DNA of 43,462 nucleotides, from positions 1 to 43,462 of the forward strand of contig JAUQWQ010000211.1 of assembly GCA_030835085.1 (NCBI GenBank). Reading direction: 5' to 3'. The stretch's first letter is position 1. Each line of letters begins with the position of its first letter. A model generated the notes under the pieces. It was not told the origin of the DNA and ran no database searches. It was given only the letters and a program-made list of their open reading frames with translations. Position numbers and translations under genes: made by a program. The stretch is from Ignavibacteria bacterium (GTDB taxonomy: Bacteria > Bacteroidota > Ignavibacteria > Tepidaquicellales > OLB5). This document shows positions 26,589 to 37,320 of this stretch, in pieces.

Positions 26589-26663
26589 TCGGGATAGCAG
26601 GATTCGAACCTGCGACCTCCTGCTCCCAAAGCAGGCGCGATAACCGGACTACGCTATATCCCG
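26589..26663 (-). tRNA. tRNA-Pro (anticodon TGG)
   Basis: On the minus strand the acceptor arms CGGGATA and TATCCCG pair, with discriminator A at 26589. The anticodon loop sits in CCTGC-TTTGGGA-GCAGG (anticodon TGG), and the T arm GCAGG-TTCGAAT-CCTGC is intact. Length is 75 bases, without an encoded CCA. It lies 31 bases downstream of tRNA-Phe on the same strand. Confidence 0.95.
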
Positions 26664-26694
26664 TGCGAATAACCCATTTTTGGGCAAAAAACTG

Positions 26695-26767
26695 TGGACA
26701 GGGCCGGAATCGAACCGGCGACACACGGCTTTTCAGGCCGTTGCTCTACCTACTGAGCTACCTGTCC
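26695..26767 (-). tRNA. tRNA-Phe (anticodon GAA)
   Basis: On the minus strand GGACAGG pairs with CCTGTCC. The anticodon stem-loop ACGGC-CTGAAAA-GCCGT gives anticodon GAA and the T arm is GCCGG-TTCGATT-CCGGC. Length is 73 bases and CCA is not encoded. Probably cotranscribed with tRNA-Pro. Confidence 0.95.
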
Positions 26768-26924
26768 TTGAAAATTTACAGCTATAAAGAACAAAAATAA
26801 GCAAAAATTTTATTTTTTAAAAGAACGAAATTTGGTATACTTCCAGGGTGGTAATATTCAGGCGATCTTAGCCGGATAACCGCAGGATCGGCTAAACCAA
26901 TTACAACCAATTTCAAAATACATT

Positions 26925-27154
26925 TTCTCATTTGCATTCTCATGATGAATGCGATTTTTTTTTCGGAGGAGTATTCATCTTGCGAATTCACTTTACGGGC
27001 TATAATCGCAATATTCTCACGATGAAAGCATTCCCATTATGAATAATTGATGATGAGAATCCATTTCCTCGATGATAATGTAAATGAGAAAACCCCCAAA
27101 ATAGCCTGATATCAGCACCTTCAAAATTCCCACGATGATTATTCATGTTGGGAA
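26925..27154. repeat. Cluster of degenerate TTCYCAYGATGA palindromic motifs
   Basis: The gap 26768-27368 has no gene I can support. Within it a 12-base motif recurs: TTCTCATGATGA (26937), TTCTCACGATGA (27014), TTCCCATTATGA (27031), TTCCTCGATGA (27065) and TTCCCACGATGA (27127), plus inverted forms at 27048-27059 and 27143-27154. Two make hairpins: GCATTC/GAATGC at 26934-26952, followed by a nine-T run, and the inverted pair at 27127-27154. Function is unknown; operator sites or a small-repeat family are possibilities. Confidence 0.5.
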
Positions 27155-27368
27155 AATTAACAGTAATAAGAAAAATAATTTTTAATGCGGCCGGTATGGA
27201 CATCTATAATAAAGGATGAATTGAATATAATTATGCTTTCTGCATACTGAAGGTAATATAATATATGCTAATTGCATTGTCAAGGGGATTTGGAAAAAAG
27301 TTTTTCTGCCAAGCCTCCCGCTAAATCAGCAACGCCCGGCAGATACAATTCAAAACATGGAAGACGCT

Positions 27369-28202
27369 CTATTCAACAGTAATTGTAATCTCCGGCAGGG
27401 GCGCGGGGTTATTGGTAATATATCGCCCGTTGTAATTTATGGTATCGCTAACTATCCAAATGCCATTATGCGGAGTATTGACCCTTCCATAATAAATACC
27501 GTCTTCGCCAATTACAGGATCAGTGTTTCCCGTGCTTTGGTACAGGCTATCCTGTTTATAAACATTAATGTACATTTGGGCATCTGTAATTTGGGTAAAT
27601 GATTGCTGGTAAACATCAGAGCTGTGCAGAATTACAGCAAGATCGTTTACGCCCGCAATGGGGGTAAATGGCGAGACCATGGTTAAGGTGTAATACATCG
27701 TATCAGCAAGATCATAAAAATATTTCAACTGTTTCTCAGGGTGCAGGCTGGTGTATAATGGAACAGAATCCGTCTCGTGGCTTGTACCCGAGGGCTCATA
27801 ATAAGTGAACCTGCAGCGCCATACCAGGTCCGGCGGGGTAGTTGGCATATTGAATATCATAAAACCTTCAAAGTAACCCGATGTTGCATTATAAGTAAAA
27901 CTATCAGATACCGGGGTGCTGTGTGTTATGTGCGGGGTCATGCGCATTTGCGGATATACCTTAACGTACCCGGCAGTTTGCGGTGTACTGCCTTCAGATA
28001 CCTTAAAATATACTTTATTGTACGCGTAAGTAAGTGAGTCATACCCGGTGACATAAAGCTTTATTGTATAATTATCCGGCAGGTTAACTGTCTGTATCTC
28101 GTTGTAAGTAACCGGCGAGCCTGTATTGTTATTATGTACAGAATCACTGCAGCCATATAAAAACACAGCAATGCCGCTTAGTATTATAATTATTGTTTTC
28201 AT
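27369..28202 (-). CDS. Lipoprotein with two YtkA-like beta domains
   Basis: A 277-residue exported protein whose signal sequence ends in a lipobox (FLYGC, acylated cysteine at residue 18). The mature part appears to hold two similar beta-sandwich modules. Each ends in a turn typical of YtkA/FixH-like domains: SGYFEGFMIFNMPTTPPDLVWRC near residue 110 and DGIYYGRVNTPHNGIWIV near 245. YtkA-like domains occur in envelope proteins associated with copper or electron-transfer handling, but no metal-ligand cluster is evident, so the role is open. It stands alone: 600 bases without a gene follow it and a 360-base gap precedes it. A weak CTGCC/GGCAG stem with a downstream T run (minus strand, near 27300-27345) may terminate it. 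Confidence 0.75.
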   Translation of the reverse strand: MKTIIIILSGIAVFLYGCSDSVHNNNTGSPVTYNEIQTVNLPDNYTIKLYVTGYDSLTYAYNKVYFKVSEGSTPQTAGYVKVYPQMRMTPHITHSTPVSDSFTYNATSGYFEGFMIFNMPTTPPDLVWRCRFTYYEPSGTSHETDSVPLYTSLHPEKQLKYFYDLADTMYYTLTMVSPFTPIAGVNDLAVILHSSDVYQQSFTQITDAQMYINVYKQDSLYQSTGNTDPVIGEDGIYYGRVNTPHNGIWIVSDTINYNGRYITNNPAPLPEITITVE

Positions 28203-28379
28203 TTTCTGATGAGGAAAGTTACTTCAATTTATGGGTTTATTCTACACAATAATATGAGCAGTGCAAAAAAGCTTATTGTAACTTGAAGATAACGATAGTC
28301 GTGTATGTGCGCAGAGCTAATGAGGCTTCTAAAACAGTCTTTACCCTTCTGAATTGTTTCAATTTTATGATGCATAATA

Positions 28380-28410
28380 TTTGCATTAAAAACTTTTTTT
28401 ATTATATTTG
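28380..28410 (+). promoter_or_regulatory. Perfect Bacteroidota-type promoter (TTTG-N19-TATATTTG)
   Basis: TTTG at 28380-28383, exactly 19 bases, then TATATTTG at 28403-28410 match the Bacteroidota -33/-7 consensus without mismatch. It is the best promoter in the window. Transcription should start near 28414-28417, only about ten bases before the terminator stem that follows. Confidence 0.75.
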
Positions 28411-28415
28411 TAATA

Positions 28416-28464
28416 CGCGCGTAGAGGACAACCACCAGAAATGGGGGGTTGCTCCTCTTTTTTT
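28416..28464 (+). ncRNA. Candidate short RNA or attenuated leader, about 50 bases
   Basis: From the promoter above to the T run at 28459-28464 a transcript would be about 50 bases and consist almost only of a GC-rich hairpin. No open reading frame fits inside. Either it is a small structured RNA in its own right, or it is the attenuated leader of the gene at 28564. No known RNA family is recognised. Confidence 0.4.
28423..28464 (+). terminator. Strong rho-independent terminator
   Basis: AGAGGA (28423-28428) pairs with TCCTCT (28453-28458), and the stem continues with CAACC (28429-28433) against GGTTG (28447-28451) across one bulged C. The loop is AGAAAT and a run of six T's follows. Confidence 0.85.
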
Positions 28465-28563
28465 ATTTATAGGGGTGATGTAATCGATTTTGTTTTAATT
28501 TTTAATACTCAGTTTTAAAAACACATTTTGCATATAGAAATTTTAACTAAGCAGTAATAAAAT

Positions 28564-29148
28564 ATGGATATAAAACTCTGGTTTGAACTGATCGGGTCTT
28601 TATTAACATTGGCTGCAATAATCTTTGGTATTATACAGTATATCAAAGCTCAAAAATGGAAGAGATTAGAGTTTATTTCGAAAGAAATTAACGATTTTGA
28701 AAATGATAAGGATGTCAGGAATGCGAAGTTTATGCTTGACTGGGATGAAACAGATGTTGAATTATACCATGATGCCTCTGACTGGGATTATGAAGACAGG
28801 TTCGTTACAGTAGATGACGAATTGTTAAAGTCATCATTAACCACTTATGAAAATGATCCTCAGCCTGATAAGCCATATTCTGATATTGAAAGCTGCATAA
28901 GAGATACCTTTGATATTTTGTTTGGTTATTTTGAAGGCTTTTATGCAAATATAAAGACCGGGCTTGTTACATTTGATGAATACTATCCGCATATAATGTA
29001 CTGGATAGATATACTTTCGAACCCGGATAATAATTTTAAAGATGATAAATTTAAGAATCTGCTAAAAGAGTTTCTGGAATATTACGGTTATGCCGGTGTT
29101 TTATGGATGTTTGATGAGCACCTGAAACGAATATCAAAAGCAAACTGA
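28564..29148 (+). CDS. Small protein with one N-terminal membrane helix (DUF4760-like)
   Basis: A 194-residue protein with a single N-terminal membrane helix (residues 8-26, LIGSLLTLAAIIFGIIQYI) followed by a soluble acidic helical domain (WKRLEFISKEINDFENDKDVRNAKFMLDWDE, then FLEYYGYAGVLWMFDEHLKRI). The N-terminal helix, KxxE-rich start and acidic helical body resemble the DUF4760 group, whose role is unknown; I hold that loosely. It is 100 bases after a strong terminator, so expression needs read-through from the promoter at 28380 or its own weak promoter. The next gene (C39-like) starts 14 bases after its stop, so the two are probably an operon. Confidence 0.7.
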   Translation: MDIKLWFELIGSLLTLAAIIFGIIQYIKAQKWKRLEFISKEINDFENDKDVRNAKFMLDWDETDVELYHDASDWDYEDRFVTVDDELLKSSLTTYENDPQPDKPYSDIESCIRDTFDILFGYFEGFYANIKTGLVTFDEYYPHIMYWIDILSNPDNNFKDDKFKNLLKEFLEYYGYAGVLWMFDEHLKRISKAN

Positions 29149-29162
29149 GTTTTGAAGCGAAT

Positions 29163-29762
29163 ATGAAAAATGTTAAATACATACCTGTTAAAGCCATCAA
29201 AATAAACTTACCCGAAGTAAGGCAGGAAGAAGACTGGTCATGCGGTGCGGCAGTATTGCTTTCTGTATTGCTTCACTACGGCAAGGGTCCGTTAACTGAA
29301 AAAATGGTTGGAGATAAGCTTAAAATGGATGAAACAGGAACAGATCCTTTTCAGATCAAGCGGGTTCTAATGCACTATAAAATAAAATTCCGTGAATACC
29401 GAGACATGACAATTGAGCAATTGAAACAGAATGTTAGTAAAGGGTACCCGGTTTTGATAATGCTGCAGGCATGGGGTGATAATCCTGAATTATACACTTG
29501 CTGCAAAGCAGACTGCGAAGACGGCCACTGGCTTATAGCAATTGGATATGATAAAGATAACATTTACTTCGAGGACCCTGTGCTGGATGTAAGCAGGGGG
29601 TATATCAGTATAAAAGAGCTTGATGCGCGCTGGCATGATTATGAATACCTGAGCGAAAAGGATAGTAAAGCAAGAAACAGGTATCATTCAGATCATTACG
29701 GAATTGCCATAACAGTAAGAAGACAGGGCAGTAAAAAAGTGCAGGTCGAAGCGATACTTTAA
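29163..29762 (+). CDS. C39-like cysteine peptidase-fold protein
   Basis: A 199-residue protein with the papain-like C39 layout: nucleophile cysteine in DWSCGAA (C27), histidine in DGHWLIAIGY (H122) and the aspartate in YFEDP (D138). The N-terminal VRQEEDWSCGAAVLLSVLLHYG is the family signature. C39 domains normally cleave double-glycine leaders of bacteriocin-like peptides as part of an ABC exporter; here it is free-standing, has no signal peptide and no transporter, so it may act as a cytoplasmic peptidase or on an unknown peptide. Extra cysteines (YTCCKADCED) precede the histidine. It follows the TM protein by 14 bases, implying a joint function. Confidence 0.82.
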   Translation: MKNVKYIPVKAIKINLPEVRQEEDWSCGAAVLLSVLLHYGKGPLTEKMVGDKLKMDETGTDPFQIKRVLMHYKIKFREYRDMTIEQLKQNVSKGYPVLIMLQAWGDNPELYTCCKADCEDGHWLIAIGYDKDNIYFEDPVLDVSRGYISIKELDARWHDYEYLSEKDSKARNRYHSDHYGIAITVRRQGSKKVQVEAIL

Positions 29763-29850
29763 TTTTAAAAATAATCTGAAGGAGTTTTTGAGTTAGATGT
29801 TTCATCGAAAAAATTATTTATTCATTATATAAAAAATAAAAATACTGATA

Positions 29851-30816
29851 ATGAGAAAAAACAATTTATGCTTAATTTTACTTTTAATGCTAAGTATTTG
29901 TTGTGCTGGCTGTGGGAAGGTTGACTCAAATAAGTATAAAAAGGTTGCAATACTAAAGTTCACTACACATCCAGCATTAGATGAACTTGAGAAGGGTTTT
30001 TCGCAGAAGCTGCAAAATCTTTTTAAAAACAAGAATGATTCAGTAATAATAGAATATTATAATGCGGATGGAAGAGTCCAAAATGCAAAATCAATTGCAG
30101 GATCACTTAATATATCTAAACCTGATATAATATTCGTTATAGGAACCCCTGCAGCAATCCAATTAGTCAACACCCCATCTAATATACCAATCATTTATGG
30201 TGCAGTTGCAGATCCAATTGGAGCAAAAATTATCCCTTCGGATAGAGTTACCGGGATTCAAAATGCAGGTGAGAACATTATTGTTAAAGCATTATCATTT
30301 ATAAGAATTGCTTTTCCGAATGCAAAAACAATTGGAACTATTTATAATCCTTCTGAACAAAACTCGAAATATGTTCAGACATTCATGGAAAAGAACTCAA
30401 GCAATTATGGTTTTAAGTTCATACAGGTTCCTATAACGGAGATATCTCAAATAACAAGTTCTATAGAATATTTATCAAACCAAGTCGATGTAATTTATTC
30501 TGCTAACGACAATACGGTGAACTCTGGTATTGGTTCCGTAACTACAATCTGTGAAAAGAAAAATATTCCTTTTGTAATTGGAGATCTGAGCACACTTTCA
30601 AAAGGTCCCCTATTTGCTATTGGTTTGGAGTATCTTTCTATGGGATTTGATCTTGCCGACATAACATTCAAAATTCTTAATGGAGCAAAGATAACAGATT
30701 TTCCTCCAAGAGAAGCACCTAATCCTCAAATTTGGATGAATAATTTGACAAAAAAGAAAATGGGTTATATTGAACCTGAAGGGTTAGAAATTTTAATTAA
30801 TAAATCAATTAATTAA
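29851..30816 (+). CDS. ABC transporter substrate-binding lipoprotein (ABC_sub_bind / TrpX-like)
   Basis: A 321-residue lipoprotein: the signal ends in CCAGC (acylated C21). The mature protein matches the ABC_sub_bind family, with VAILKFTTHPALDELEKGF, IIFVIGTPAAIQL, IPIIYGAVADPIGAKI, GTIYNPSEQNSKYV and IPFVIGDLSTLSKGPLFAIGLEYLSMG. Some family members (TrpX) bind aromatic amino acids, but the ligand here is unknown. It is first in a tightly spaced four-gene operon with permease (4 bases later), ATPase and an LDH-like dehydrogenase. Base composition is much more AT-rich than in flanking genes, a sign of recent acquisition. No clear promoter is seen in the 88 bases upstream. Confidence 0.88.
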   Translation: MRKNNLCLILLLMLSICCAGCGKVDSNKYKKVAILKFTTHPALDELEKGFSQKLQNLFKNKNDSVIIEYYNADGRVQNAKSIAGSLNISKPDIIFVIGTPAAIQLVNTPSNIPIIYGAVADPIGAKIIPSDRVTGIQNAGENIIVKALSFIRIAFPNAKTIGTIYNPSEQNSKYVQTFMEKNSSNYGFKFIQVPITEISQITSSIEYLSNQVDVIYSANDNTVNSGIGSVTTICEKKNIPFVIGDLSTLSKGPLFAIGLEYLSMGFDLADITFKILNGAKITDFPPREAPNPQIWMNNLTKKKMGYIEPEGLEILINKSIN

Positions 30817-30820
30817 CAAA

Positions 30821-31831
30821 ATGGAAGAATTTATAATTGATAGTATAAAATCAGCTATTTTAACAGGGTGGATATTTGGCATTGGGGCAATTGGATTAAG
30901 TCTAATTTATAAGTATCTCAATTTTCCAGATTTTACAACTATAGGTTCATTAATAGTAGGGGCAATATGTTGCATAAAATTTGGACAGGACAGTATCGTA
31001 TTAGGATTACTTGCTTCTGTAATATCAGGCATGATTTTAGGAATAGTTACGGCAATTCAAATTAATAAAATTCAAGTCCCACCTGTAATAGCGGGAATTA
31101 TTACATTTACAATATCTCAAACTATTGCATATAAATTAACTATGGACGAAGCAACTGTATTCTTTGGTGGGAATAGAGAAGTTTTAGATTTGATTATTTC
31201 CAGTGATTTTACGTGGTGGAGTGTTATCGTATTTTCTGCTATAACAATATTTATATGTACCCTAATAGCATTGTTTTTCAAAACTAAATATGGTGCTTTA
31301 ACTTTGGCTATGATAGCAGAAGATCATTACATTAAATATAGACATCATAGAAAAGAATCAACTAAGTTGATATTGTTATCAATAGGAAATAGTATTATAG
31401 GCCTAACAGGTGGTTTCTTTGCAATTCAGCAAAATTCTGCGAATACATCTAATTTTTCCGATTTTTTAATAATTGCTATAAGCGCATATGCATTAACAAA
31501 TTTTTTTATTTCATGGATAAATAAAAAACAAGTAAGAGATTACTTGAAAAAAGAAAATATACCTTCGTCAAGTTATATATTCAAAGTAATGATATTTTTT
31601 CTTCCATGGCTAAAGCTTGCCGATGAAAAACCACTTAAAATATTTACAAGTTTAATTTTAACTGTTTGCTTTTCAATTGGAATATATTCAATTTTTATGA
31701 CAGCCAATTTATATTTAAGCAAATATCAAGATTTTAAACATTTTAATTTTGCTATTCAGGGAATTTTGTTAGTAATTATTTTATTAATACCAATAATATT
31801 TGAAAAATTTTCATTTGACAACAAACTATGA
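30821..31831 (+). CDS. ABC transporter permease (TrpY-like)
   Basis: A 336-residue integral membrane protein with about nine hydrophobic segments, among them WIFGIGAIGLSLIYKYLNFPDFTTIGSLIVGAI and VIFSAITIFICTLIALFF. The order and the NFPDFTT turn after the first helix match the BPD_transp_2 permease group that partners ABC_sub_bind proteins. It would form the homodimeric channel for the substrate delivered by the upstream lipoprotein. The stop overlaps the ATPase start (ATGA, 31828-31831). The extended loop IKYRHHRKESTKLILLSIGNS carries the coupling-helix position. AT-rich like its neighbours. Confidence 0.87.
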   Translation: MEEFIIDSIKSAILTGWIFGIGAIGLSLIYKYLNFPDFTTIGSLIVGAICCIKFGQDSIVLGLLASVISGMILGIVTAIQINKIQVPPVIAGIITFTISQTIAYKLTMDEATVFFGGNREVLDLIISSDFTWWSVIVFSAITIFICTLIALFFKTKYGALTLAMIAEDHYIKYRHHRKESTKLILLSIGNSIIGLTGGFFAIQQNSANTSNFSDFLIIAISAYALTNFFISWINKKQVRDYLKKENIPSSSYIFKVMIFFLPWLKLADEKPLKIFTSLILTVCFSIGIYSIFMTANLYLSKYQDFKHFNFAIQGILLVIILLIPIIFEKFSFDNKL

Positions 31832-32634
31832 ATAATCAAACTGGGTATTCTGTAAAATTAAACAAAGTATCTTATAAACCAAATATTTTCGGAGATAGAG
31901 GTGTCTTAAATAATATTTCAATTGATATTTTGGGAGGAGAATTTGTCTCTATAATTGGAAGAAATGGTCATGGTAAGACTTCAATTATGAGAGCTATTGC
32001 AGGTGAAATTGATAATTTATTTGGTGAAGTCTATGTGAATGGTATTTTGATTAATAAACCAATTAATTCATTGATAAGTGGAGTTGGCTTCGTTCATCAG
32101 TTTGTTCAATATGATTTAATCAAAGAATTAAGTATCGAAAAAAATATTCAAATTCGTCAATTATTAGGTAATGAAAAATTTAGAAACATTGATTTTACGG
32201 ATGATCGCTGGGTAGCGCATATAAACAAAGAATTAGCACAAGTGATGGGGAGCAATAATGTATATCCTACAATAGACTATTTAGTCGATTATTTATCCGG
32301 AGGTCAACGACAATTATTGAATGTATATATTGCTTTAAAGCTTGAACATATTAAAAATGAATTTTGCAAATTATTATTGTTAGATGAACATCTAAGTAGC
32401 TTAGATTATGTTATTTCACGTAAAGTTATGACTTTAATTGAAGAGTTGTGTCCATTATCAAACGGTAAGAGATCTACTACAATAATAATGGTGACACATG
32501 ATTTCGAATGTGCTTTAAAATATTCAGATAAAATTATTATTCTAAAAGATGGAGAAGTCAAGGAAATAGTAAATAGAACTGATGCAAAAGCAAATTGGAA
32601 TGAAGGATATTTAATAAATTCTATTGAAGTATAA
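31828..32634 (+). CDS. ABC transporter ATP-binding protein (TrpZ-like)
   Basis: A 268-residue ATPase that powers the permease above. Visible motifs: Walker A GRNGHGKT (44-51), Q-loop VGFVHQF, signature LSGGQRQL (156-163), Walker B LLLLDEHLSSLD (D186, E187) and H-loop VTHDFECAL. The EHLSSLD ending (DEH instead of the usual DEP) is seen in ATPases of the ABC_sub_bind systems. It is translationally coupled to the permease and is followed at four bases by the dehydrogenase gene, so uptake and first metabolic step are probably co-produced. Confidence 0.9.
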   Translation: MNNQTGYSVKLNKVSYKPNIFGDRGVLNNISIDILGGEFVSIIGRNGHGKTSIMRAIAGEIDNLFGEVYVNGILINKPINSLISGVGFVHQFVQYDLIKELSIEKNIQIRQLLGNEKFRNIDFTDDRWVAHINKELAQVMGSNNVYPTIDYLVDYLSGGQRQLLNVYIALKLEHIKNEFCKLLLLDEHLSSLDYVISRKVMTLIEELCPLSNGKRSTTIIMVTHDFECALKYSDKIIILKDGEVKEIVNRTDAKANWNEGYLINSIEV

Positions 32635-32638
32635 ATAT

Positions 32639-33577
32639 ATGAATATAGGGATAATTGGTGCTGGTAAAATAGGATCACATATTGCAGATCAACTGTTAAT
32701 GGTCGATAATATTAAAAATATACACTTAGCTAACCGAGACAAAATAAAGTTGAAAGGCCGATTGTTGTCATTAAAACTTAAAAGTCATTATAATAATAAT
32801 CTTAAATGTATTAGCGAATTTAATTGGAGAAATATTAACTATTATGACTTAATTGTAATTTGTATAAAAGATAAGTATGATCCTAGAACTTTATTCCTAA
32901 AAAATGAAATATCATCTGGCATTCCTAAGAATCTACGATATGTAGGTTTGCAGCTTGATTTACCATTAATCAAATCTATTTGCCTTAAATTGAAAAATTA
33001 CTCAGGAAAAATAGCTGTAATAACAAATCCTGTGGAGATTGTTTCGTATTACGTAAACAAATGGATCCCAAACTCATTTGTTTTTGGTTTAGGTGTATCT
33101 GTAGATGCCGCGAGGTTAAGCTTTGTACTTAAAGAAAAAGGATTTCTTAATATCCCGAGAGAAGAAATACATCTAGCTGGAGAACATGGAAATAATTTAA
33201 TTATTGTATCAAATCTAATGAAAACAATTTTTAATAAAAGAGATTTAAATGAAAAAAAAATTAATCGTTATTTAAAGCAATCAATGAAACTTGGATTTGA
33301 TATAGCTAAATTTTTAGGCTTTACACTTCAAGATTGTACTCCAATTTTCGTTGAAGATATTCTATATATTTTAAATAATAAATATGATAATAATTATCAT
33401 TCTTTTTCGATAATCTCAAAATCAAATGCTTGCAGTTTACCCATTAAATTTGAAAAAATACATAAATATTCGCCCTATATAAATTTTACTAAAAATGAAA
33501 AAAAATCATTAGAAAAAATTCAGATTAAGTTAATGAATATCATTAGTTCAATTGATTCATCAATTTTACTAGTATAA
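32639..33577 (+). CDS. Lactate/malate dehydrogenase-superfamily protein
   Basis: A 312-residue NAD-dependent 2-hydroxyacid dehydrogenase homologue. The Rossmann fold starts with GAGKIG (7-12); TNPVEIV (129-135) matches the TNPvdi stretch; D156 and R159 (VDAAR) and H183 (AGEHGNN) keep the LDH/MDH catalytic spacing of 27 residues between Asp and His. The active-site loop arginines are not obvious: around residues 80-100 only R83 and R100 are available, so the substrate may not be lactate or malate. I used the ATG at 32639; a TTG at 32624 would overlap the ATPase gene. It ends the AT-rich operon, and a terminator follows 125 bases later. Substrate probably is what the transporter brings in. Confidence 0.8.
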   Translation: MNIGIIGAGKIGSHIADQLLMVDNIKNIHLANRDKIKLKGRLLSLKLKSHYNNNLKCISEFNWRNINYYDLIVICIKDKYDPRTLFLKNEISSGIPKNLRYVGLQLDLPLIKSICLKLKNYSGKIAVITNPVEIVSYYVNKWIPNSFVFGLGVSVDAARLSFVLKEKGFLNIPREEIHLAGEHGNNLIIVSNLMKTIFNKRDLNEKKINRYLKQSMKLGFDIAKFLGFTLQDCTPIFVEDILYILNNKYDNNYHSFSIISKSNACSLPIKFEKIHKYSPYINFTKNEKKSLEKIQIKLMNIISSIDSSILLV

Positions 33578-33701
33578 TAAAAAATTTTTGTATGATTATA
33601 TTCTTATATTAATCATGAATTCAATAATTTATTCCAAGATAATTTTGTTCCATATAGAAAATTTTACGAAGTGAAGTAGCTGCAGAAAATAGAAGGAAAC
33701 A

Positions 33702-33725
33702 AAAAGGACGCTATCGCGTCCTTTT
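33702..33725 (+). terminator. Terminator hairpin after the transporter-dehydrogenase operon
   Basis: AAAAGGACGC (33702-33711) pairs perfectly with GCGTCCTTTT (33716-33725) around a TATC loop. Its A/T flanks would let it work on both strands. Confidence 0.75.
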
Positions 33726-33813
33726 CTATGTAAATCTTTACCGGCTGAATTGAGTCCTTCGTTCGTTTCTCATTCTTTCAGCAGATGAAAGGTGTAAGTG
33801 CAAAGCTCGTATT

Positions 33814-34074
33814 GAATGCTGACCTTACTTTGCTGTGCAGAGTAAGGTCAGCATCAAACCCTGTTACATAGTTTATGACCATACTCCGTTAACACGGAGT
33901 ATGGTTTCCTTCCTACTGCAGTGCAGTAGGAAGGCACAGCGATCAAACCCTATTACTTAGTTTATGACCTTCCTCAGCAAAGCTGAGTAAGGTTTCACCT
34001 TTCACCGCTATGTCTGTTATGCTGACCTTCCTTCGCTTCGCTCAGTAAGGTTTCGATCAAGTCCTTCGGACTTG
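33814..34074. repeat. Array of variable-stem hairpins with a repeated spacer
   Basis: Five hairpins share the frame GACCwTnCT...AGTAwGGT but have different paired stems: 33816-33829/33841-33854, 33878-33888/33895-33905, 33908-33918/33924-33934, 33967-33978/33982-33993 and an imperfect one near 34024-34051. A last stem CAAGTCC/GGACTTG lies at 34058-34074. The spacer ATCAAACCCTnTTACnTAG then TTTATGACC occurs twice (about 33853-33880 and 33942-33969). The 33578-34077 gap holds no gene. Both arms change together between copies, so pairing is conserved while sequence is not. Confidence 0.8.
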
Positions 34075-34077
34075 CTC

Positions 34078-37000
34078 TCAAAAATCCGCCCCAATTGATA
34101 TCATATACCTCGGCTGGGAGAATTTCTGCATGTCGTAGGTCCATGCAATGTCGAGTTTCATGGGGAAATAGAGGAAGAATAACCTCGTACCTATTCCCAT
34201 ACTCAACAGCAAATCCTTTGTCTGGAATCCATTTACATCCTGGAATAGCTGAAGCTTTTTGTTATCGCTCCATACTGTACCCGCATCCGCAAATATTACT
34301 CCCTGTATGTTCTGGAAGCCGAAAGGCAGTAATCCCAATATCAGATATCTGAATAGAGGGAAACGAAACTCCGCGTTCATAAGCGCGAACTTGCTGCCTG
34401 AGCGCGTGTTGTAATTATAGCCTCTAAGCGGCAATACCGGTGTTGAAAATGCGAAGTCCTGAATATCCTCTATCGGAAGCTCGTCATTTTGAATTTCATA
34501 ATTTATCCAGCTTTCGGTTCCTCCAATGTAAAAGCGCTGTGGATTTTTCCCGAAACTGTAGCCGCCATTGAGCCTGAGTACAAATGTATAATCATCAGCA
34601 AGATCAAAATATGTTCTGTAATCACCAATAGCACTGAAGAAACTTACTCCGTTTGATCCAATTTTTGGCGTACCAAGAAGCGTTATGTTATACCTTGTTC
34701 CTTTTATTGGCGCAGTGTAACCCCATAATGTGTTATCATGCACGTAACTTACGGCCGGCATCACAAAATCAAGCTTCTGTGTTGGCTCAAGGGGATTATC
34801 AAGATTCTCTTTGGTTAAATGATTGTACGAAAGCGCTCCGTCTATCCTGTTGAATTTACTGAGCGGATATGAAATCGAAAGGTCACCGCCAACTGTTCTG
34901 TACCTGTAGAGCTGGGAGTTGCCTAGTGAAGGACCTACAAGCAGGAACCTTGCCGAGTGGTAACCTGAAATACCAAAGTCAATTCGTTTTGGCAGGTAGT
35001 AGTATGCGAAAGCGTAATCGCTGTTTTTCAGGTCAAGCACCGCGCTAAGTGCAGCGTATATTCTGTGGTCGCCTGTCACATCGCTGAATGCCATCTGTAT
35101 AAGACCCTGTACACCGTAAAAGCTGCTGTAATTTGCATTGCTGTAAACAAGATCGGGTGAGAATTTTATTTTGTAATTGTTAACCTTATAGCTTCCGTCC
35201 GGATTTGTATTATCTGTCAGCTGGAATTTGCTTTTATTCTTTTCCTTTAGCTTCAGCCTTTGCGATGGAGTTTGTTTGTTTGTATCAGATTTATCCGGAT
35301 TTAGATTAAGCGAAACATCGTCGCCATACAGAGATTTTGTGGAATCGGCGGTTAAGCTGCTATCCTGCGGATTTATTTTGCTGGAATCAAGTGTAAAGTA
35401 TTCATCCAATACTGTTGAATCATTGGCAAGGTTAAGCAATGAGTCCGCGATTATTTTCATCGAATCAGCGAACGTTTTTTCCCTGTCCCTGTCATCTATT
35501 CTTTTCTGCACAAACGGCGTATTGGGAAGCTCTTTCATGCCAAGATCGATATCGAACGGATTATCGAGGTAAAAAATATCATAGCCGCCCTTGTTAAGCG
35601 AAGTGAAAGCAAGCCTCTTTCCATCGGCAGAGAGCGATAAAAGAGAAATGGGATCAAGTGAATTTGTGATCGGTCTTTCTTCTCCTGTTTCCAGGTTACG
35701 CAGCCAAATGTTATCAATTCCGTTGCGGTCGGATATATACAGCACTTTTTTGCCGTCAGCTGAGCTTACCACGCTTGATTCATTTGCATGTTTATCTTCG
35801 GTAAAGCGGGTGAGCTGTTTGGTATCAACATCATAAACATAAAGATCTTTATCTTTGAAGTCGTAATCGTTCATATTAAAATCCACAGGTATATCATTCA
35901 GGTTGGTATATGTGCCTCTATCAGAAGAAAAATATATTTTCTTCCCGTCACGTGACCATTTGGGGTCAATATCAGAAAACAGGTCATTGGTAACACGGTC
36001 TAGCTTTTTCAGGTTGAGGTCGTATATCCAGATATCTGACTGCCTTGAGTTATCACCGCGAAGTACGAGCGAATTATTCACTGGGTTCCAGTCAACTGAA
36101 AATATACCGTCAAATTCAATGGGAAGCTCGCGTTCATCGCCGCTTTCTGCGTCAATAATATAAATCGCATCTTTGGCTCCGCTTTTTACTGAAATAGCTA
36201 TTTTCTTGCCGTTGGGTGACCAGCATAATCCCGGAGTAAGCAAATGAAGCTCTTCGAAATCAGCGGTTTGGTTGCCGCCGATAAGTTTTTTTATGATCTT
36301 ACCTGATTTAATATCAGCTATGTACACGCTGAAATATGTATCACGGTTAGAAATGAATACTACCTTATCACCTTTTGGAGAGATTGAAGGCGCAGTATTG
36401 TAAAAACCATCGCCTTTTCTTGAATCTGTTAGGCGCATCGCGAAATCATTCAGTTCCTGCCTTGAATTAATATCCGGCCAGTAAGTTTGTTTAAGTGATT
36501 TATGCCATTTTTCAGAAAGCTTCTCTATTCCTAAATTATAGACATCAACAAATCCTTCGTCAACATCACCAAGTCCTTTTATCTGTATCATAAGGTCGCC
36601 GATCTTTTCTTTGCCGTACTCATCGGCCAGCCAGGAAAAAAAGCTTTGCCCGCCGCGGTATGAAAGGTAGCCATCTATGTAATCAAGCTGAGGAAGGTAA
36701 TCGTATATCACCGCATCGCGGATGAACATGTCATTGGCTTTATCCATTCCGCCAAGCGACTGGTATTCTGCCATTCCCTCACTGAACCAGCCGGGGAACT
36801 GAAGTGCTATATTCTGCGAAATTATATTTTGAATTGAGCCGCCATAGTAGAGGTCATTCATATAAGCATGAAGCAGCTCATGGTGGATTACGTGGCGGAA
36901 TTTATCATAATCTCCCTCAAACGGTACGACTATTCTGTTTTTAAAAAGCTCTGTTACTCCGCCAATGCCTTCTGAAAGATATTCATCAACAGCATTGTTC

Positions 37001-37320
37001 TGCTGAAACTCATTATGAGAATTGAATACAAGTATCGGTATCCTGTTCTTAATGCCGTAGCCAATGTTATTTTCCAGGCTTACCAGTGAACTCTCGGCGG
37101 CTACTGCTGTAAACTGTGCAATGTACTCGCCGCCCTGGTTGAAATAAATATCAAAATGCTGTGACTGCAGATACTTCCAGTCAAACACCTTGTACTGAAC
37201 CTTATTCTGACCAAACTGTGAGAACACGTTTTGGGAGGCCGCAATAATCATAAATGCGGCAATAAATGATCTTATCAATAATCCGGGGCTTGGGATCTTT
37301 ATTAACTTCATTATTTCCAT
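34078..37320 (-). CDS. Zincin-like / TolB-propeller / BamA-like barrel outer-membrane protein
   Basis: A 1080-residue exported protein with a signal peptide (AAFMIIAASQNVFSQ) and three parts. Residues about 40-290 form a gluzincin-like peptidase (peptidase MA type) with HELLH at 147-151 and the glutamates of WFSEGMAEYQS (181, 185). Residues about 300-590 are a TolB/WD40-like propeller with repeated motifs such as PSISPKGDKVVFISNR, WSRDGKKIYFSSDRG and SADGKRLAFTS. After an Asp/Ser linker, residues about 710-1080 are a BamA/Omp85-like barrel (DHRIYAALSAVLDL, FYIGGTESW, LPLRGY, ISIGADF). It is probably anchored in the outer membrane with catalytic and propeller domains in the periplasm or outside. 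A start at 37311 is also possible. Function unknown. Confidence 0.82.
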   Translation of the reverse strand: MEIMKLIKIPSPGLLIRSFIAAFMIIAASQNVFSQFGQNKVQYKVFDWKYLQSQHFDIYFNQGGEYIAQFTAVAAESSLVSLENNIGYGIKNRIPILVFNSHNEFQQNNAVDEYLSEGIGGVTELFKNRIVVPFEGDYDKFRHVIHHELLHAYMNDLYYGGSIQNIISQNIALQFPGWFSEGMAEYQSLGGMDKANDMFIRDAVIYDYLPQLDYIDGYLSYRGGQSFFSWLADEYGKEKIGDLMIQIKGLGDVDEGFVDVYNLGIEKLSEKWHKSLKQTYWPDINSRQELNDFAMRLTDSRKGDGFYNTAPSISPKGDKVVFISNRDTYFSVYIADIKSGKIIKKLIGGNQTADFEELHLLTPGLCWSPNGKKIAISVKSGAKDAIYIIDAESGDERELPIEFDGIFSVDWNPVNNSLVLRGDNSRQSDIWIYDLNLKKLDRVTNDLFSDIDPKWSRDGKKIYFSSDRGTYTNLNDIPVDFNMNDYDFKDKDLYVYDVDTKQLTRFTEDKHANESSVVSSADGKKVLYISDRNGIDNIWLRNLETGEERPITNSLDPISLLSLSADGKRLAFTSLNKGGYDIFYLDNPFDIDLGMKELPNTPFVQKRIDDRDREKTFADSMKIIADSLLNLANDSTVLDEYFTLDSSKINPQDSSLTADSTKSLYGDDVSLNLNPDKSDTNKQTPSQRLKLKEKNKSKFQLTDNTNPDGSYKVNNYKIKFSPDLVYSNANYSSFYGVQGLIQMAFSDVTGDHRIYAALSAVLDLKNSDYAFAYYYLPKRIDFGISGYHSARFLLVGPSLGNSQLYRYRTVGGDLSISYPLSKFNRIDGALSYNHLTKENLDNPLEPTQKLDFVMPAVSYVHDNTLWGYTAPIKGTRYNITLLGTPKIGSNGVSFFSAIGDYRTYFDLADDYTFVLRLNGGYSFGKNPQRFYIGGTESWINYEIQNDELPIEDIQDFAFSTPVLPLRGYNYNTRSGSKFALMNAEFRFPLFRYLILGLLPFGFQNIQGVIFADAGTVWSDNKKLQLFQDVNGFQTKDLLLSMGIGTRLFFLYFPMKLDIAWTYDMQKFSQPRYMISIGADF

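What the first reader, a model, noticed from the sequence alone, without database searches (positions are those of the whole stretch)
33814..34074. Hairpin array with covarying stems
Seen: five stem-loops share the GACC...GGT edges but have different, internally paired stems, plus a near-identical spacer repeated at about 33853 and 33942. Base pairing is kept while sequence changes, so selection is on structure. Not CRISPR (no identical repeats), not attC-like in layout. It could be an RNA, a REP/BIME-like element family, or a protein-binding/insulator region between convergent units.
Basis: seen in the sequence. Interest (0 to 1): 0.65.

Follow-up and report, generated by a model that had tools for sequence, protein, structure and literature searches.

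The report
Cluster of REP-like hairpin repeats
A run of short DNA hairpins downstream of one gene in an Ignavibacteria genome turns out to be a local pile-up of a small, scattered family of mobile-looking hairpin repeats that keeps the base of each hairpin fixed while its tip changes yet stays paired.

Summary
Five strong stem-loops, plus a sixth small one, lie at 33816-34074, in the 3' UTR between the stop codon of a minus-strand gene (34078-37320) and its terminator (33701-33726). They belong to a dispersed family that I define here as tag (YG) + [A/C]CTTACT - self-complementary apex - AGGAAG[T/G]. The foot carries a fixed A.G mismatch and the apex varies. The family is abundant in three sister species (27, 24 and 30 covariance-model hits), sparse in four congeners, absent from six others. 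Apices pair far above chance (72% versus 26% shuffled). Copies sit mostly just after stop codons, sometimes in tandem. One orthologous site is filled in one sister and lacks the element in another; other sites differ in copy number. This is a REP/BIME-like repeat family, but it lacks the GTAG/CGTC tags, and no family hairpin flanks any Y1/RAYT transposase locus of the carrier genomes (17 examined) or of four congeners. Mismatches are overwhelmingly purine-purine on one strand, which fits recognition of one folded strand. Covariation alone does not prove selection, because template switching can produce it, and three window hairpins show that signature. Function and mobiliser are inferred, not shown.

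The parts
33816..33854 (-). hairpin 1; foot mismatch resolved to A-T (CCTTACT...AGTAAGG), outer stem extended by TGACC/GGTCA
33853..33886 (-). spacer repeat copy 1 (ATCAAACCCTGTTACATAGTTTATGACC on the + strand, plus start of hairpin 2)
   Evidence: family D3, 88% identity to copy 2
33878..33905 (-). hairpin 2; perfect stem CCATACTCCGT/ACGGAGTATGG; the apparent G005 counterpart keeps CCTTACT...AGGAAGG
33908..33934 (-). hairpin 3; foot mismatch resolved to C-G (CCTTCCT...AGGAAGG)
33942..33975 (-). spacer repeat copy 2
33967..33993 (-). hairpin 4; canonical family member ACCTTACT-CAGCTTTGCTG-AGGAAGGT with the A.G foot mismatch
   Evidence: 25.6 bits
34025..34051 (-). hairpin 5; canonical family member ACCTTACT-GAGCGAAGCGA-AGGAAGGT, tandem G.A mismatches and GAA loop on the minus strand
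   Evidence: 24.2 bits
34058..34074 (-). small hairpin 6 CAAGTCC-GAA-GGACTTG, joined by ATCGAAAC to hairpin 5; same two-hairpin layout as dispersed subfamily A
   Evidence: shared by G005 and nearly so by G012 in the orthologous 3' UTRs
33701..33726 (-). rho-independent terminator-like hairpin of the gene at 34078-37320; a counterpart is seen in relatives with and without an array
34078..37320 (-). host gene, 1080 aa, Peptidase_MA-like domain plus PD40 beta-propeller repeats

Best explanation
The array is a local cluster of copies of a REP/BIME-like palindromic repeat family confined, as far as searched, to one Ignavibacteria genus and expanded in three sister species. Each unit has a short 5' tag ending in G, a fixed foot [A/C]CTTACT/AGGAAG[T/G] with an A.G mismatch, and a freely diverging apex that stays paired. 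Shown: the family, its fixed foot and mismatch, its covarying apex, its lineage restriction, presence/absence and copy-number differences between sister species, and the preference for sites just after stop codons. Inferred: units spread as folded single-stranded DNA of the CTTACT strand, recognised by foot, tag and mismatch, through a HUH (Y1) type transposase acting in trans whose gene was not found. They multiplied locally by tandem duplication and are tolerated in the 3' UTR, where as a by-product they fold in the mRNA. The window copies look like an ageing cluster, because three of five have lost the mismatch. Confidence 0.75 is for the REP-like family cluster; the transposase step alone I would put at about 0.45.
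For: Dispersed family: DNA and pattern matches elsewhere in G000 and in congeners, with zero matches for the reversed control pattern. CTTACTN{3,18}AGGAAG occurs 35 times in G000, 35 in G005 and 46 in G012, against 18, 7 and 11 for the reversed control; other relatives show no such excess. Interiors are 71.6% paired against 26.4% when shuffled, maximum 33% in 500. In A2 (27 distinct 24-nt cores), 91.9% of cells are paired and 24 cells are changed on both sides against 8.0 in shuffles; the outer pair is A-T in 17, C-G in 10 and never broken. A covariance model gives 27, 24 and 30 hits in G000, G005 and G012, 6 or fewer in G002, G009, G004 and G001, none in six others. Perfect-foot versions with a paired apex occur only in the window array. 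Tag: G at -2 in 27/27 subfamily-B and 24/30 other copies. Apex mismatches are 31 purine-purine against 2 pyrimidine-pyrimidine on the CTTACT strand. Site differences: a two-hairpin unit present in G005 and absent in G000 (L251/L009); extra tandem copies in G000 against G005 (L218/L252) and G012 (L210/L231). The window's own 3' UTR varies among sisters and lacks the array in more distant relatives.
Against: No Y1_Tnp gene in the three carrier genomes (17 of 17) is flanked by the family hairpin; those examined carry other hairpin families or none recognised. The canonical GTAG or CGTC tag is absent. Copy number is modest. The filled/unfilled pair could in principle be a deletion. Carrier genomes are draft assemblies, so a mobiliser could lie in a gap. 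The purine-purine bias is partly shared descent (the GAGC/GCGA group).
Confidence: 0.75

Rival explanations
1. 3'-UTR RNA element: the hairpins are kept because, in the mRNA, they protect the 3' end, stall exonucleases or tune transcription termination or translation of the upstream gene, and the pairing is kept by selection at RNA level.
For: 49 of 82 distinct copies lie within 100 nt of a facing stop codon. The window array sits between stop and terminator. Folding is very strong on both strands.
Against: Subfamily orientation relative to the upstream gene differs (A antisense 17:1, B 13:6, C sense 8:4), while the mismatch polarity always follows the CTTACT strand, so no single RNA form is common to all copies. 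The orthologous gene in more distant relatives goes from stop to terminator without an array. G-T pairs are rare (1 of 270 cells in A2). Nothing significant in Rfam.
Confidence: 0.15
2. The compensatory changes are not selected at all: intrastrand template switching (quasipalindrome correction) copies one arm onto the other, so arms stay complementary while drifting. This competes with selection as the cause of the covariation, not with the family assignment.
For: In the window array the A.G mismatch was resolved to A-T in two hairpins and to C-G in one, whereas the apparent G005 counterparts of two of them keep A.G. The process is described as creating and maintaining hairpins (PMC8794818).
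Against: It explains arm complementarity but not dispersal. The A.G mismatch is kept in nearly all dispersed copies: perfect-foot copies with paired apex were found only in the window. Mismatches are strongly strand-biased to purine-purine, which a symmetric copying process does not predict.
Confidence: 0.3
3. Simple local tandem duplication of one hairpin plus spacer at this locus.
For: The 34-nt spacer repeat is 88% identical; tandem copies are seen elsewhere.
Against: The hairpin occurs at tens of unrelated loci in the same genome and in congeners. Duplication may account for part of the array's growth, not for the family.
Confidence: 0.05

Closest known systems
REP elements (GTAG- and CGTC-tagged palindromic repeats, PMC3733652) and their clusters (BIMEs)
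   Same: 20-40 bp palindromes, mostly between unidirectional or convergent genes and downstream of coding regions, single or clustered, species- or genus-restricted, sometimes intragenic; one 5' foot carries a conserved unpaired motif
   Different: Tag is YG (CTTG, CCTG, TACG), not GTAG or CGTC; the stem foot is fixed with an A.G mismatch while the apex sequence is free to change; no transposase gene flanked by it was found
RAYT/TnpA_REP-associated REPs and IS200/IS605 subterminal hairpins (PMC6006769)
   Same: Single-strand hairpin with a foot-adjacent guide-like motif; other hairpin families in these same genomes flank Y1 genes, in tandem with spacings of about 40 and 68 nt, similar to the 36-37 and 77-79 nt spacings seen for this family
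   Different: This family does not flank any Y1 gene examined; its cognate enzyme, if any, is unknown
CGTC REPs (PMC3733652)
   Same: Palindromic repeats reported to lack a dedicated transposase
   Different: Different tag, stem and taxonomic range

Membership tests
REP elements (general) | short palindromic repeat, dispersed, many copies in one genome | tested here: met
   27 model hits in G000, 24 in G005, 30 in G012; pattern counts above the reversed control
REP elements (general) | extragenic, preferentially 3' of genes | tested here: met
   Of 82 distinct copies, 12 fall inside a called ORF; 49 lie within 100 nt of a facing stop codon (simple ORF calls)
GTAG/CGTC REP superfamilies | GTAG or CGTC unpaired tag at one end | tested here: not met
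   Consensus upstream of the foot is C-Y-Y-G or similar, and CGAAA in subfamily A
RAYT-associated REPs | copies flank a Y1 (RAYT) transposase gene | tested here: not met
   None of 17 Y1_Tnp loci in G000, G005 and G012, none of those of G002, G009, G003 and G008, and none of 3 of the 11 in G010 has a family hairpin; a RAYT-like gene in G000:C182 is flanked by CACAGACA/TGTCTGTG hairpins, the downstream one GTAG-ended
RAYT-associated REPs | cleavage or transposition by the transposase in trans | not testable with these tools
   needs biochemistry
Integron attC sites | GTTRRRY/RYYYAAC core sites and gene cassettes between sites | tested here: not met
   read in the sequence: no such core sites at the feet and no ORF cassettes between the hairpins
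CRISPR array | near-identical repeats with regular unique spacers | tested here: not met
   the hairpins differ, and it is the spacers that are duplicated
Known structured RNA (Rfam) | covariance-model match at gathering score | tested here: not met
   best sub-threshold match E = 0.07, far below its gathering score

The most novel reading that the evidence does not exclude
A class of mobile hairpin whose identity is carried only by its foot, A.G mismatch and tag while the apex is free, spread by an enzyme other than the known Y1/RAYT transposases, with subfamilies settling at fixed orientation right after stop codons.
Probability: 0.12. Interest if true: 0.65.

Novelty: new variant of a known kind. 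Interest (0 to 1): 0.4.

Why it matters
It gives a natural data set, from three sister species with sites that differ in occupancy, for two open points about REP-like repeats: what part of a palindromic repeat is recognised (here apparently foot, mismatch and tag, not apex), and whether paired arms are kept by selection or by template-switch copying. It also warns against reading covariation in DNA hairpins as proof of a functional RNA.

Tried and rejected
(1) CRISPR, attC and known RNA families: rejected. (2) Linked RAYT: looked for at all Y1_Tnp loci of the three carrier genomes and of four congeners, plus some of a fifth; none found. (3) Insertion targeted to hairpin tips: a few copies sit inside other hairpins or terminators (L226, L249, the G005 terminator in L033, L112/L114), but a test of flank complementarity gave only 2 of 78 copies, so this is not the rule. 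(4) The spacer ATCAAACCCT as a dispersed marker: only the two window copies match exactly; at two mismatches the pattern gives 77 hits against 26 for the reversed control, which I did not resolve. (5) Phage or plasmid origin: no match. (7) The special stability of the d(GCGAAGC) mini-hairpin is from my own knowledge; the paper search only showed, by titles and abstracts, that this hairpin is used as an extraordinarily stable DNA motif. It fits hairpin 5 and its relatives, not all family members.

Full report
What is in the sequence. The region 33816-34074 holds five strong stem-loops and one small one. As single strands the 411 bases 33680-34090 fold with z = -11.5 (minus) and -9.5 (plus) relative to dinucleotide shuffles. 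Four hairpins share GACC...GGT edges; the fifth (33908-33934) does not. A 34-nt spacer is repeated at 33853 and 33942 (88%). The array lies in the 3' UTR of the minus-strand gene 34078-37320 (Peptidase_MA-like plus PD40 repeats), between its stop codon and a rho-independent terminator-like hairpin at 33726-33701; the neighbouring gene 32624-33577 is convergent.

The same 3' UTR in relatives. The window lies in G000, a genome of 4.05 Mb in 234 contigs; it is Ignavibacteria, judged by the names of the relatives. In two sister species, G012 (L032, gene 94% identical) and G005 (L033, 92%), the same 3' UTR starts with the same or nearly the same CAAGTCC-GAA-GGACTTG hairpin but carries fewer and different hairpins after it. 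In L037 (82%) the gene runs straight into its terminator, and the other, more distant orthologues show no array of this kind either. In G005 the terminator loop itself contains a further hairpin of the family type (one search scores it at 25.9 bits). The array is therefore a recent, lineage-specific feature.

It is a dispersed family. A 25-mer from hairpin 5, with up to 3 mismatches, is found in 8 of 13 genomes of the genus and never with the reversed control. Relaxing it to the two feet only, CTTACTN{3,18}AGGAAG, gives a clear excess over the reversed control only in G000 (35 vs 18), G005 (35 vs 7) and G012 (46 vs 11) among 59 relatives. The pattern says nothing about the interior, yet the interiors are 71.6% self-paired against 26.4% for shuffled interiors (maximum 33.1% in 500). 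The alignment A2 of 27 distinct 24-nt cores shows 24 cells changed on both sides (8.0 in shuffles, 0/500 as high), a covariation score of 0.223 (0.086 in shuffles), and no comparable value when partners are slid. A covariance model from A2 finds 27, 24 and 30 copies in G000, G005 and G012, 6 in G002, 4 in G009, 2 in G004, 1 in G001 and none in the other six. It recovers two window hairpins (25.6 and 24.2 bits) and only weakly a third.

Anatomy of a unit. The foot is [A/C]CTTACT/AGGAAG[T/G], with an A.G mismatch as the fifth pair. Versions of the foot with that mismatch repaired were sought separately: with a self-complementary apex they occur only in the window array, hairpins 1 and 3; hairpin 2 is also perfect but has a further changed foot. 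The 5' side carries a tag ending in G at position -2 (27/27 in subfamily B, 24/30 in the rest). Subfamily A is a two-hairpin unit, GAG-stem-CGAAAC followed by CTTACTCC-GNA-GGAGGAAG, and the window's hairpins 6 and 5 have the same layout. Apex mismatches on the CTTACT strand are 31 purine-purine, 2 pyrimidine-pyrimidine and 7 others. This suggests that the CTTACT strand is the one that folds in a way that matters, with the caveat that related copies share some of these mismatches.

Where the units sit and how they differ between sisters. Of 82 distinct copies, 49 lie within 100 nt of a facing stop codon. Subfamily A is almost always antisense to that gene (17:1), B mostly (13:6), the rest more often sense (8:4) (ORF calls are simple). 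Tandem copies occur with spacings of 36-37, 52 and 77-79 nt. Between sister species, a complete two-hairpin unit is present in G005 and absent in G000 (L251/L009); G000 has extra tandem copies relative to G005 (L218/L252) and G012 (L210/L231); and a tandem pair has different but internally matched apices in G012 and G005 (L246/L260). One copy lies in-frame in the C-terminal region of a protein ending in a secretion-type domain (L221, L259; the domain type is my reading).

Transposase. The genus is rich in Y1_Tnp genes, many with their own flanking hairpin families: CACAGACA/TGTCTGTG, CGATGGGC, GTGTCAGG, GTTGTTGG, GCATCAAC and others. None of the 17 Y1_Tnp loci in G000, G005 and G012, none of those listed for G002, G009, G003 and G008, and none of three sampled in G010 carries the array's hairpin (the weak E = 0.45 match in L302 is at chance level; the two strong matches are L296 and L297, fetched as family copies, not as Y1 loci). 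The family is thus without a visible mobiliser in these genomes.

Mechanism. The best-supported reading is a REP/BIME-like family that spreads as folded single-stranded DNA and is tolerated after stop codons. Steps shown: family, fixed foot and mismatch, paired apex, lineage restriction, occupancy and copy-number differences. Steps inferred: single-strand transposition, a HUH enzyme in trans, neutrality in the 3' UTR. The covariation needs care. Template switching in replication can copy one arm onto the other (PMC8794818), and the window array shows the expected signature: hairpins 1 and 2 have A-T and hairpin 3 has C-G where the family has A.G, and the apparent G005 counterparts of hairpins 2 and 3 keep A.G. 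Dispersed copies keep the mismatch, so there it is probably needed.

Comparison with known systems. REP superfamilies are defined by GTAG or CGTC tags, and GTAG REPs by association with RAYTs (PMC3733652, PMC6006769). Neither feature is met here, so the family is not filed as a GTAG or CGTC REP, nor as a RAYT-associated REP. In size, location, clustering and lineage restriction it works like one. A full-text search for REPs in Ignavibacteria gave one paper, on Caldithrix, which I did not read.

Limits. Genomes are draft assemblies and were sampled in stretches; E-values from the short calibration are rough; the pattern searches fix the feet by design, so foot invariance in A2 is not evidence (the separate searches are).

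Noticed in passing
window 26800-33650: An AT-rich stretch (26-36% G+C in its core against about 42% around it) with a C39-like peptidase, ABC_sub_bind protein, permease, ABC ATPase and a dehydrogenase-like gene lies between the terminator at 33700 and two tRNA genes at 26589-26767; in L032 and L037 the terminator is followed almost directly by tRNA-like sequence, so this looks like an island next to tRNAs.
   Followed up: partly
L070 (G000:C182) 1637-2190: A RAYT-like Y1_Tnp gene (148 aa) flanked by GCACAGACA...TGTCTGTGC hairpins, the downstream one GTAG-ended: a likely ordinary RAYT-REP pair in the same genome.
   Followed up: partly
L317, L310, L284 (Y1 loci of G010, G008, G002): Tandem arrays of near-identical hairpins on both sides of Y1_Tnp genes, spaced about 40 nt in L317 and 67-68 nt in L310.
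   Followed up: no
L221:454-477 and L259:1001-1024: A family hairpin inside a coding region, near the C-terminus of otherwise different secreted-type proteins in G000 and G005.
   Followed up: partly
L226 and L249 around position 1001: Family hairpins nested in the loop of another palindrome (GTTGTTGGTS...SACCAACAAC) that elsewhere flanks a Y1_Tnp gene (L081).
   Followed up: partly
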